Shown here: in pieces, positions 35,403-37,393 of the stretch
How positions within the stretch are numbered: the stretch's first letter is position 1
Layout of the letters: the number at the start of each line of letters is the position of its first letter
Origin: Cyanobium sp. CACIAM 14
GTDB lineage: Bacteria; Cyanobacteriota; Cyanobacteriia; PCC-6307; Cyanobiaceae
Reading direction: 5' to 3'
Length of the DNA: 49,199 nucleotides
Assembly (NCBI GenBank): GCA_000708525.1
Contig: JMRP01000021.1
Span: 1-49,199, forward strand
The notes under the pieces: generated by a model
What the model was told of the DNA's origin: nothing
Databases searched by the model: none
Seen by the model: the letters and a program-made list of their open reading frames with translations, nothing else
Program-made: the position numbers and the translations under genes

Positions 35403-36824
35403 CTAGGCCTCCTGGTACACCGACACGTAGACCGTGCCCTTCTCCACCAGCGGCAGCAGCTTGTCGCGCAGGTCCTGGTTGTGCAGCCGGATGCAGCCAA
35501 GGGTGGGGTGCAGGGGCTGCTGCGGGGCCCAGGCGCCGGGCCAGCCGCAGGCCGTGCCGCCGCCGTGCACCATGATCCCGGCCCGGCCGAACCGCCGCTC
35601 CTGCATCTCCAGATCCTCCAGATCGAAGCTGTACCAGCCGTAGCTGCAACGGTCGGCGGAGTAGGTGGGGGAAGGATCCTGCTCGTAATCCCTGTAGACC
35701 TTCTTGGCGATGCGGTAAAGGCCGGGCGGGGTGTCGGTGGAGTTCTCCTTGTACTGGTTCTCCCTGCCCTGGCCGCGGGCGAGGGCGGGGATCTCCCAGA
35801 GCAGCCGGCCGTCCACGTCGTAGGCCTTGGCCGTCTCCGATCCGTCGTTCACCACCACATGGGAATCGGATCCGCTGAAGCCGAACTCCCGGGGGGTCCT
35901 GCTGGGCCCCACCATGCCGGGCACCGCCATCGGGCCCTCGGCCGCCGGTGCCGGCGCCGGTGCCGTCAGGGCTCTCGAGGTCGGGGCTGGAGCGGGGGTG
36001 GCGGCCTGCTGCCTGAGGCGCTGCTCCCAGGCTTCGCAGTCGGCCGGGGTGCGGATCTCGCGCTCCGCCTGGGCGCAGGCGGCGGTGGGCTCCATGCCGG
36101 TCCAGACCAGCCCCTCGGCCCGCCGGCGCCGCCCCAGCCCCACCTCCGCCCCCTCGCCGGGGTTGCGGTACATCATCAGGGCGCCTGGAACCGCCTCCCA
36201 GCGGCGCTCCCGCAGGTGCCGGTCGAGCGTGTCGTGGTGCCCATCACCGAAGAAATGGGCGCCGTTGTTGTAGGCGAAGCTGCACAGGGCGGCCCGCTGC
36301 CGGTCGCTCATGTCCGCCCAGAAGGGAATGGTGGCCTCCAGCACCTTCCAGAAGGTCTCGCGGCAGTTGTGGTCGTAGAGCGCGTCGGCCTGCTCCTGGG
36401 TGATCACATCCCCCAGCCGGATGGGGGATCCGTCCTGGTAGAAGGTGCTGCCCCAGCCGATCGTGATCGGTTCGGCGCCGGTGCGCGGGTCGGGGTAGGC
36501 CTGCAGGCGGCAGCCCTCGTAGTGGTGGTTCAGCTGGGCCACCTCGGGGGGGAGCTGGCCGGCCGCGGCGGGCTGGATCCAGGCCTCGGCGGGAATGTCG
36601 AACCGGTCCGGATTCAGGTAGCGCTGATCGCCGGCCTGCAGCGGCGCCGTGCCGCCCGGGCAGGTGTAGCGGCCCGCCAGCTGCACGAGGGCCAGGCCCG
36701 GAACCGGAGCCGGCCGCACCCAGGCCACGGCGATGCGGGACCCGGAGGCCACGTAGGAATCGGCATCGGCGGCGGCGGGTGTGGGACTCAGGCCCGCATC
36801 CTCCCGGGCGGTGATGTACGGCAT
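35403..36824 (-). CDS. Fusion of GH24-type lysozyme and YkuD L,D-transpeptidase
   Basis: A 473-residue protein with two cell-wall domains. Residues about 93-255 form a T4-lysozyme-like (GH24) domain with Glu103, Asp112 and Thr121 placed as the catalytic triad (HYEGCRLQAYPD, ITIGWGS), followed by GDVITQEQADALYD and RQRAALCSFAYNNG. After a Pro/Ala-rich linker (about 270-305) comes a YkuD domain (about 312-470) with HGGG...HPTLGCIRL, catalytic Cys444 and Arg446. One half would cut glycan strands; the other would make 3-3 peptide cross-links or attach proteins. No signal peptide is evident, as in many endolysins. Its ATG overlaps the stop of the upstream two-helix protein gene. Confidence 0.85.
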   Translation of the reverse strand: MPYITAREDAGLSPTPAAADADSYVASGSRIAVAWVRPAPVPGLALVQLAGRYTCPGGTAPLQAGDQRYLNPDRFDIPAEAWIQPAAAGQLPPEVAQLNHHYEGCRLQAYPDPRTGAEPITIGWGSTFYQDGSPIRLGDVITQEQADALYDHNCRETFWKVLEATIPFWADMSDRQRAALCSFAYNNGAHFFGDGHHDTLDRHLRERRWEAVPGALMMYRNPGEGAEVGLGRRRRAEGLVWTGMEPTAACAQAEREIRTPADCEAWEQRLRQQAATPAPAPTSRALTAPAPAPAAEGPMAVPGMVGPSRTPREFGFSGSDSHVVVNDGSETAKAYDVDGRLLWEIPALARGQGRENQYKENSTDTPPGLYRIAKKVYRDYEQDPSPTYSADRCSYGWYSFDLEDLEMQERRFGRAGIMVHGGGTACGWPGAWAPQQPLHPTLGCIRLHNQDLRDKLLPLVEKGTVYVSVYQEA

Positions 36825-37393
36825 CAGAGGCTGCCCCCCAGACGGATCCGCTCCAGCGGGGTCAGGGCCGGTGCCGGTGCCGGGGCCGGCGGCGTGACCG
36901 GCACCGCCGTGGTCACCTGGATGGGGGTGCGGCTGCGCTCCATCTCGGCCCTCAGCCTCTGCACCTCCTCACGCAGGGCCTGAAGGCGGGGGTCCTCCGA
37001 GGCCGCGGCCGGAGCCGGTGGCGGGGCTTGTGCCACGGCCTCGGCGGGCTGGCCGAGCCTGGTGCCGAGCACCAGGTCGCGGAGGTCGGAGCTCTTCAGT
37101 TCGCCGAGGCGCTGCTCGGCGAACTTCTGCAGCACCTTGGGGGCGAAGGCCCCCACCAGGAAGACGAAGGTGAGGGTCATCCCGGTGTCGTCCCGGGGGG
37201 GATAGGTCATGGTCTCCTGCCCGCTGGAATCGCGGCTCACCATCGGCGCGCTGCGCAGCATCGTGAGACCGCCGAAGGCGATCGCGGCCAGCAGGGACAC
37301 CATGCACATCAGTCGCATGGCGGACCTGTTCCCCGGGGATTCCTCCAGAAAGCCGGTCGTCGGAACGGCGGCGGCACGGACGGGGGCGTTCAT
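36824..37393 (-). CDS. Two-helix membrane protein, holin-like topology
   Basis: A 189-residue protein. Helix 1 is about residues 26-46 ([21 protein letters not shown]), helix 2 about 70-92 ([21 protein letters not shown]), followed by a charged segment ([18 protein letters not shown]), a Pro/Ala stretch, a short coiled coil ([18 protein letters not shown]) and a Pro-rich tail. ATG 37393 is chosen because GGAG lies 4 bases upstream. Its stop overlaps the start of the lysozyme/transpeptidase gene (TGATG), so the two are made together. It could export or anchor that enzyme; a holin role is inference from topology and context only. Confidence 0.6.

What the first reader, a model, noticed from the sequence alone, without database searches (positions are those of the whole stretch)
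35403..37393. Lysozyme-L,D-transpeptidase fusion with a coupled two-helix membrane partner
The 473-residue protein carries an intact GH24 catalytic triad (Glu103, Asp112, Thr121) and an intact YkuD Cys444/Arg446 in one chain. A wall hydrolase joined to a cross-linking enzyme is unusual. The upstream gene overlaps by TGATG and encodes a holin-like two-helix protein with a coiled-coil tail. No other phage gene is nearby, so this may be a domesticated wall-remodelling or secretion device, with the membrane protein exporting or anchoring the enzyme.
Basis: partly seen in the sequence, partly recalled or inferred. Interest (0 to 1): 0.72.

Follow-up and report, generated by a model that had tools for sequence, protein, structure and literature searches.

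The report
Cyanobacterial chromosome-kept phage-style lysis pair
Some cyanobacteria appear to have kept a phage-style, two-gene "cell-wall opener" at a fixed place in their chromosome, made of a double-headed wall enzyme and a small membrane partner, which suggests the cell itself uses it for controlled lysis or release.

Summary
Window 36824..35403 (-) encodes one 473-residue protein with GH24 lysozyme (PF00959, 1.5e-20) and YkuD (PF03734, 3.6e-9) domains and intact catalytic residues. A 189-residue hydrophobic protein (36824..37393, -) overlaps it at TGATG. A third domain (residues 1-86), not noticed before, models as SH3b-like. The pair occurs in 14 of 42 genomes of the genus, beside one transporter gene in all 14 and next to katG in 13, under purifying selection like its neighbours. 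Two further genomes hold a variant pair there, with a different enzyme C-terminus and membrane protein. The fusion recurs in a distant cyanobacterial family (4 of 7 genomes of one genus, 53-55% identity), again with an overlapping small membrane gene where readable. The partner's core resembles a phage protein two small ORFs upstream of an endolysin. Cyanophages pair this YkuD with several glycosidases. Best reading: a host-domesticated holin/endolysin-type pair whose leaderless, double-acting endolysin attacks the wall from within; lysis versus non-lytic release is undecided. "Wall cutter joined to cross-linker" is better read as a two-cutter endolysin. New variant of a known kind.

The parts
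35403..36824 (-). 473-aa bicatalytic protein: SH3b-like N-domain + GH24 muramidase + Pro/Ala linker + YkuD domain; no hydrophobic export or TM segment called
36567..36824 (-). N-terminal domain (residues 1-86), SH3b-like in the AF2 model; among fetched loci found only in the chromosomal fusions, the two variants and the second family
36114..36524 (-). GH24 (Phage_lysozyme) domain, residues 101-237; E103, D112, T121 intact
35433..35861 (-). YkuD domain, residues 322-464; H420, G443-C444, R446 intact
36824..37393 (-). 189-aa holin-like membrane partner with N-terminal G(N/K)RSxxRL motif, two hydrophobic segments and QKFxE motif
36822..36826 (-). TGATG stop/start overlap coupling the two genes (kept in 12 of the 14 genus carriers read; 13-nt gap in L031 and L037)
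36827..36997 (-). conserved C-terminal part of the partner (charged stretch, SRTPIQV and terminal [12 protein letters not shown]), absent from the two phage relatives
37552..39774 (+). flanking katG (catalase-peroxidase, my reading from sequence), divergent neighbour; not part of the system
32741..34444 (-). flanking SulP-type transporter gene (my reading from sequence), conserved neighbour; not part of the system

Best explanation
The pair is a phage-derived holin/endolysin-type cassette that has become a resident host system. Shown: gene structure, domains, intact active sites, fixed chromosomal site, purifying selection, recurrence in a second cyanobacterial family, similarity of the partner's membrane core to a phage protein close to an endolysin gene, and of the enzyme to cyanophage endolysin modules. 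Inferred mechanism: the leaderless enzyme is made in the cytoplasm, held next to the membrane by translational coupling and perhaps by contact between its SH3b-like N-domain and the partner's conserved tail. When the partner is triggered (accumulation or loss of membrane potential, as for holins) it lets the enzyme reach the periplasm. There GH24 cuts the glycan and the YkuD head acts on the mDAP3-D-Ala4 bond of stem peptides, most likely as an L,D-endopeptidase that opens cross-links. The outcome is a controlled wall opening by the host for its own purpose (lysis of some cells, or release of cargo).
For: Beside the same transporter gene in 14 of 14 carriers and next to katG in 13 of 14 (absent in G286), plus 2 variant pairs at the same place. 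dN/dS 0.20 for the enzyme (GH24 0.14, YkuD 0.17) versus 0.23 katG and 0.17 sulP; pairwise pN correlates r 0.87 and 0.84 with the neighbours. Full-length fusion with overlapping small membrane gene in a distant family. Partner profile at E < 1e-30 in 5 of 388 class genomes, all with the fusion; all five gave rows to the profile, so the informative part is that no other genome reaches that level. A phage relative of the partner (73 aa) lies two small ORFs upstream of an endolysin (phrog_465, 2e-37), hhalign probability 97.6 to the partner. YkuD with GH24 (S-CRM01 adjacent genes; L085 fused, on a contig with portal and minor head genes), with Glucosaminidase (S-CBS4), with GH19 (B23, below cut-off) and beside Phage_lysozyme2 (two islands tested). 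YkuD enzymes with LD-endopeptidase activity are known (review PMC12729407, passages).
Against: No expression, lysis or enzyme data. The partner's two phage relatives were found with a pattern taken from its own QKF motif, so their E-values are optimistic, and near the second one (L123) I recognised no endolysin. The second-family partner is only weakly similar (hhalign probability 11.5). Three other genomes give weak partner matches (E 1e-4 to 0.009); two of them (L128, L129) were only glanced at by eye and nothing was concluded. The second hydrophobic segment is borderline. No spanin gene was recognised. The partner is less constrained (dN/dS 0.39). No cargo is linked to the locus.
Confidence: 0.7

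Rival explanations
1. Non-lytic wall-maintenance enzyme: the partner anchors or exports the enzyme steadily, GH24 trims glycan and YkuD truly cross-links or edits stem peptides (remodelling or repair).
For: YkuD keeps the Arg after Cys (R446); the review says DpaA lacks an arginine conserved in LD-transpeptidases (PMC12729407 passages; that it is this one is my assumption). Retention under purifying selection. Sister lineages have GH24 joined to a C39-like peptidase domain and an N-terminal membrane region in one chain.
Against: Enzyme has no hydrophobic export segment. Its YkuD relatives in phages and islands sit in lysis-type or phage-like settings. Homology of the partner to the fused membrane region was not shown (hhalign E 0.035).
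Confidence: 0.15
2. Lysis module of an unlinked host-owned particle (gene transfer agent, tailocin or similar), as the RcGTA endolysin/holin genes lie apart from the particle cluster.
For: Precedent: rcc00555/rcc00556 elsewhere in the genome from the RcGTA cluster (PMC8601537 passage). Two-gene cassette with no structural genes around.
Against: Three particle markers do not track the pair: tail sheath PF04984 in 3 of 14 carriers, phrog_212 major head protein in 3 of 14, PF05065 capsid in 2 of 14. Other particle types were not tested.
Confidence: 0.08
3. Type 10 secretion-like device: the pair locally opens the wall of living cells to let a folded cargo out. This is a special case of the best explanation, so the odds overlap.
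For: T10SS are phage-derived cassettes and non-lytic secretion is reported (PMC13284979 abstract), lytic release too (PMC10847048 passages). Typhoid toxin export needs an LD-transpeptidase plus an LD-specific hydrolase (PMC12729407 passage); here both kinds of domain are in one protein.
Against: No spanin pair and no recognisable cargo beside the locus; conserved neighbours look like housekeeping genes.
Confidence: 0.12
4. Conflict or suicide module (altruistic lysis on infection, or competition), with interchangeable enzyme heads.
For: C-terminal half and membrane partner differ together at the same locus in G148 and G280, with a relic of the YkuD end left in G148. The same GH24 type (76% identity) is embedded in a diversity-generating-retroelement target protein in G280.
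Against: No sensor, toxin-antitoxin pair or defence genes recognised next to the pair (not searched with defence profiles); enzyme sequence is conserved rather than diversifying.
Confidence: 0.1
5. Left-over prophage lysis genes with no host role.
For: Phage ancestry of parts.
Against: Same site in all carriers, both active sites intact, purifying selection, second family.
Confidence: 0.03

Closest known systems
Cyanophage/prophage endolysins with YkuD (S-CRM01 g113+g112, S-CBS4 gp063, B23 gp319, phage-type contig L085)
   Same: Same YkuD type, paired with a glycosidase; GH24 in L085 (Pfam) and in S-CRM01 g113 (by similarity and its 'endolysin' annotation)
   Different: None has the SH3b-like N-domain; S-CRM01 has two separate overlapping genes; all lie in phage or phage-type sequence
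Type 10 secretion systems / phage-derived lysis cassettes in bacterial chromosomes (ChiWXYZ, TtsA, YenLC)
   Same: Phage-derived wall-enzyme genes, with a holin gene in ChiWXYZ and YenLC, outside prophages (PMC13284979 abstract, PMC10847048 passages, PMC12729407 passages)
   Different: No spanins or cargo recognised here; different enzyme heads; host is a cyanobacterium
RcGTA lysis genes rcc00555/rcc00556
   Same: Stand-alone chromosomal endolysin plus holin (PMC8601537 passage)
   Different: None of the three particle marker families tested tracks this pair
SpmX (Caulobacterales), a co-opted GH24 phage lysin
   Same: Host-domesticated GH24 fold; structural match to SpmX 6h9d, Z 16.3 over 143 residues, rmsd 2.3. 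The co-option paper was seen as a title in a reference list only
   Different: SpmX is a localisation scaffold with its own C-terminal membrane segments (recalled); no YkuD (recalled)

Membership tests
GH24 phage-type lysozyme (PF00959) | Family profile match above cut-off | tested here: met
   74.2 bits against 22.3
GH24 phage-type lysozyme (PF00959) | Catalytic Glu, Asp, Thr | tested here: met
   E103, D112, T121 in 20 of 20 aligned rows with the domain
GH24 phage-type lysozyme (PF00959) | Muramidase activity | not testable with these tools
   needs enzyme assay
YkuD L,D-transpeptidase family (PF03734) | Family profile match above cut-off | tested here: met
   37.8 bits against 23.4, (second-family copy 22.4, just below)
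YkuD L,D-transpeptidase family (PF03734) | Catalytic His and G-C-x-R motif | tested here: met
   H420, G443, C444, R446 in 22 of 22 aligned rows with the domain
YkuD L,D-transpeptidase family (PF03734) | Cross-linking versus hydrolytic activity | not testable with these tools
   needs muropeptide analysis
Holin | Small membrane protein similar to phage proteins found near endolysins | tested here: met
   L124 relative two small ORFs upstream of a phrog_465 endolysin; found with a pattern from its own motif; L123 relative has no endolysin recognised nearby
Holin | At least two membrane-spanning segments | tested here: inconclusive
   second segment borderline
Holin | Match to a curated holin family | tested here: not met
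   no holin family in Pfam, PHROGs or NCBIfam; so it is called holin-like only
Holin | Membrane lesion formation | not testable with these tools
   needs assay
Type 10 secretion system | Holin-like gene plus wall enzyme gene outside a prophage | tested here: met
Type 10 secretion system | Secreted cargo dependent on the pair | not testable with these tools
   no cargo gene recognised; needs exoproteomics
Type 10 secretion system | Spanin pair (present in ChiYZ and YenLC) | tested here: inconclusive
   none among 10 neighbours scanned with PHROGs at 0.001; a spanin elsewhere or too divergent is not excluded
Prophage | Adjacent structural, packaging or integration genes | tested here: not met
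   none among 10 window neighbours by PHROGs; none recognised by eye in gene calls of L031, L032, L034, L037, L116, L117, L119, though L117 has two transposase-like genes 3-7 kb away
Gene transfer agent lysis module | Co-occurrence with a particle gene cluster | tested here: not met
   3 of 14, 3 of 14 and 2 of 14 carriers for three markers; other particle types not tested

The most novel reading that the evidence does not exclude
A cyanobacterial, non-lytic wall-gating device in which one protein both edits and cuts the wall: the YkuD head makes or recognises L,D-type links and the GH24 head then cuts there, gated by a domesticated holin whose acquired cytoplasmic tail docks the enzyme's acquired SH3b-like N-domain. 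It would be a single-chain counterpart of the two-protein LdtD + TtsA arrangement used for toxin export.
Probability: 0.15. Interest if true: 0.85.

Novelty: new variant of a known kind. Interest (0 to 1): 0.58.

Why it matters
Host-kept holin/endolysin cassettes are known as toxin- or protein-release devices (listings and abstracts) and in gene transfer agents; no listing from my four searches that could show a cyanobacterial case or a GH24-YkuD fusion did so. If this pair is active, it gives a defined, testable gene pair for controlled lysis or release in unicellular cyanobacteria, a process that matters for release of organic matter and for product recovery. It also points to YkuD domains as lytic heads of cyanophage endolysins, paired with several different glycosidases.

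Tried and rejected
Prophage remnant: rejected on synteny, selection, neighbour scan and second-family recurrence. Particle-linked lysis genes: three markers tested, none tracks the pair. Homology of the partner to the membrane region fused to GH24-C39 proteins in sister lineages ('Rosetta stone'): the lead looked good by eye but hhalign gave E 0.035 over 14 columns, so it is not claimed. Partner in annotated phages by tblastn: one phage (two records) at E 6, none for the second-family partner, and for the phage relative L124 five records at E 0.03 to 0.6. Curated families for the partner: none; the phage relatives gave only weak PHROG hits. Upstream regulatory footprint between katG and the partner: 12 upstream regions aligned, no clear conserved operator seen by eye. 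Fold of the N-domain: no Foldseek hit below E 0.001 in PDB or BFVD; the top VIA-align row is a bacterial SH3-like domain (Z 6.7, rmsd 2.1 over 62 residues), which by the tool's own note may be only a common arrangement. NCBIfam gave only below-cut-off hits (gene transfer agent endolysin BgtA 57.9 bits against 315). Literature: 'endolysin'+'YkuD' gave 8 papers; of passages read in four three show YkuD as a rare endolysin domain and none shows a GH24-YkuD fusion; listings added no case. First value for the partner's dN/dS (0.393) included codons upstream of the likely start in some rows and lost L037; recomputed from the likely start with 55 pairs it is 0.387.

Full report
What is there. The minus strand at 36824..35403 encodes one 473-residue protein. 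Pfam finds PF00959 Phage_lysozyme at residues 101-237 (1.5e-20) and PF03734 YkuD at 322-464 (3.6e-9). The best PHROG is phrog_3617 (unknown function, 1.3e-40), followed by endolysin families for the same stretch; NCBIfam gives only below-cut-off hits. No hydrophobic export segment is called in the protein. The AF2 model (31-row alignment, mean pLDDT 78.6, pTM 0.47) gives a clear lysozyme fold at 88-244 (best Z 18.9, rmsd 1.9 over 147 residues, PHAb10 9kbq) and weaker Foldseek matches of the C-terminal part to YkuD-fold enzymes (Pgp2 6xj7 E 2.6e-4, then 8da2, 5bmq, DpaA 8ikr at 0.003 to 0.01); parts of the YkuD region, including 423-442, are modelled with low confidence. Residues 1-86 are a further domain: modelled alone (mean pLDDT 88.8) its best VIA-align match is a bacterial SH3-like domain, Z 6.7, rmsd 2.1, 62 residues, with many SH3 or SH3b-containing chains below it; this is suggestive only.

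Where it occurs. In a family-wide search, 64 of 300 genomes have some match and 12 a full-length one, the window's own included. In the genus, 14 of 42 genomes have the full-length fusion and the same 14 have the partner at E < 1e-60. Named records of carriers include Cyanobium, Synechococcus, Aphanothece and Microcystis elabens strains. The pair lies beside a SulP-type transporter gene in 14 of 14, with katG on the other side in 13; in G286 (L032) a glutaredoxin-like gene is next instead (gene names are my readings from sequence). Matches at 83-88% to this katG and 77-80% to this transporter gene occur only in these genomes plus G148 and G280; the other katG matches in the genus are at 68% or less. 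Of 10 window neighbours scanned, none matches a phage structural, packaging, integration or lysis family. NG86 dN/dS over 55 pairs of 11 loci is 0.20 for the fusion, 0.23 for katG, 0.17 for sulP; within the fusion 0.14 GH24, 0.17 YkuD, 0.23 N-domain, 0.29 linker. The partner, recomputed from its likely start, is 0.39 over 55 pairs.

Variants at the same site. G148 and G280 carry there a 619/621-residue protein whose part matching fusion residues 1-296 is 57-58% identical, followed by PG_binding_1 (just below the Pfam cut-off in G148, above it in G280) and a different C-terminal domain; in the G280 protein, the one scanned, it matches phrog_3000 and the C-terminal part of endolysin family phrog_33083. 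The overlapping upstream gene encodes a 473-residue protein with several hydrophobic segments (four called in G148) and no detected similarity to the partner; only its last residues (TPLxRI/KIxxxGxL) resemble the partner's end. Among 10,875 distinct ORFs of 60 aa or more in the fetched loci this terminal motif is found only in the two partner types (17 entries); it was read off these sequences first, and retention of old DNA at a recombination joint explains it as well as selection does. G148 keeps a short relic of the YkuD end (64% identity to residues 438-473) downstream.

Second family. In 388 genomes of the class, full-length matches at 53-55% identity occur in four genomes of another family, which are 4 of 7 genomes of that genus searched. 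In the two whose upstream DNA is held (L117, L119) a 121-122-residue gene with hydrophobic segments overlaps at TAATG; in the other two the contig ends. I recognised no phage genes next to the pair by eye; L117 has two transposase-like genes 3-7 kb downstream. The N-domain profile, run on ORFs of the loci fetched by then, hits only the genus fusions, the two variants and this family; it was not run on whole genomes. The partner profile over the same 388 genomes reaches E < 1e-30 only in five fusion carriers, all of which gave rows to the profile; three others match weakly (E 1e-4 to 0.009).

Origin. S-CRM01 has an endolysin gene similar to the GH24 part (g113) and a YkuD gene (g112), overlapping. 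L085, from another genus, has a GH24-YkuD protein without the N-domain on a contig with portal (phrog_145, 1e-68), minor head and tail genes. S-CBS4 has Glucosaminidase-YkuD; B23 has YkuD with a below-cut-off GH19 match. In phage-like islands of the family YkuD stands in its own gene near a head-protein gene (PHROG-checked in L061), and in the two islands tested (L058, L103) the next gene is Phage_lysozyme2. The YkuD tree does not resolve the deep order. For the partner, a scan of viral contigs found two relatives among 16 pattern matches. L124 (73 aa) is separated from an endolysin gene (phrog_465, 2e-37) by two small ORFs, one with a weak spanin hit (E 0.06); near L123 (69 aa) I recognised no endolysin. 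hhalign, partner versus these: probability 97.6, E 4e-12; hmmsearch 5.5e-7 and 1.2e-6; second-family partner versus partner: probability 11.5, E 0.0026. The scan pattern came from the partner's own conserved motif, so these values are optimistic, but the alignment extends well outside it. Both chromosomal partner groups carry a C-terminal extension that the two phage proteins lack.

Mechanism (inferred). The enzyme has no export signal that I could find, its partner is holin-like, and the genes overlap: this is the logic of a phage holin/endolysin cassette. Because cyanophages pair this YkuD with several glycosidases, I read YkuD as the second cutting head; L,D-endopeptidase activity has been reported for YkuD enzymes (PMC12729407 passages). 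Cross-linking remains possible. Two additions mark the host version: the N-domain of the enzyme and the tail of the partner; that they bind each other is a guess. Whether cells lyse, or open their wall locally as in type 10 secretion (PMC13284979 abstract; PMC10847048 passages), cannot be decided from sequence.

Against. No experimental data; the holin assignment rests on a motif-seeded search and position; no spanin or cargo found; three particle markers do not co-occur; the partner's second membrane segment is borderline; and 28 of 42 genomes of the genus do without the fusion, two of them with the variant pair.

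Noticed in passing
L073 7937-13490 (G280:C9): A diversity-generating retroelement whose 1185-aa target holds a GH24 domain 76% identical to the fusion's plus an FGE-type domain; 125-nt variable/template repeats differ at 15 sites, 14 of them at A in the template; an RVT_1 gene lies between.
   Followed up: partly
L052-L070 (many family genomes): Recurring phage-like islands with a phrog_212 head protein, scaffold and portal-like genes (checked in L061), a stand-alone YkuD gene, an 88-aa hydrophobic ORF and sometimes a Phage_lysozyme2 gene; several head-protein copies in some genomes.
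   Followed up: partly
L087-L089, L091-L098, L100, L101: Proteins of about 600-890 aa (L098 cut by the contig end) with N-terminal hydrophobic segments followed by GH24; a C39-like peptidase domain follows (Pfam-checked in L088, aligned in four). A shorter GH24-C39 form (L104, Pfam-checked) sits beside a gyrA/parC-like gene, as does its relative in L111.
   Followed up: partly
L077, L079, L081-L083, L108, L110: GH24-C39 endolysin-type genes of phage-like islands each directly preceded by an 82-aa ORF, by 4-nt overlap in six of seven; a holin role is only a guess, since no TM segment passed my cut-off and PHROGs gave no match for the one scanned.
   Followed up: partly
window 12559-19918: Low-G+C stretch (53-60%) in a window mostly of 70-75% G+C, holding a GAF-GGDEF-EAL response regulator and a 1367-aa multi-PAS histidine kinase: possibly acquired.
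   Followed up: partly
window 41158-41424 and L117 4492-4809: A glutaredoxin-like gene lies a few kb from the pair in the window's genus and also in one genome of the distant family; may be coincidence.
   Followed up: no
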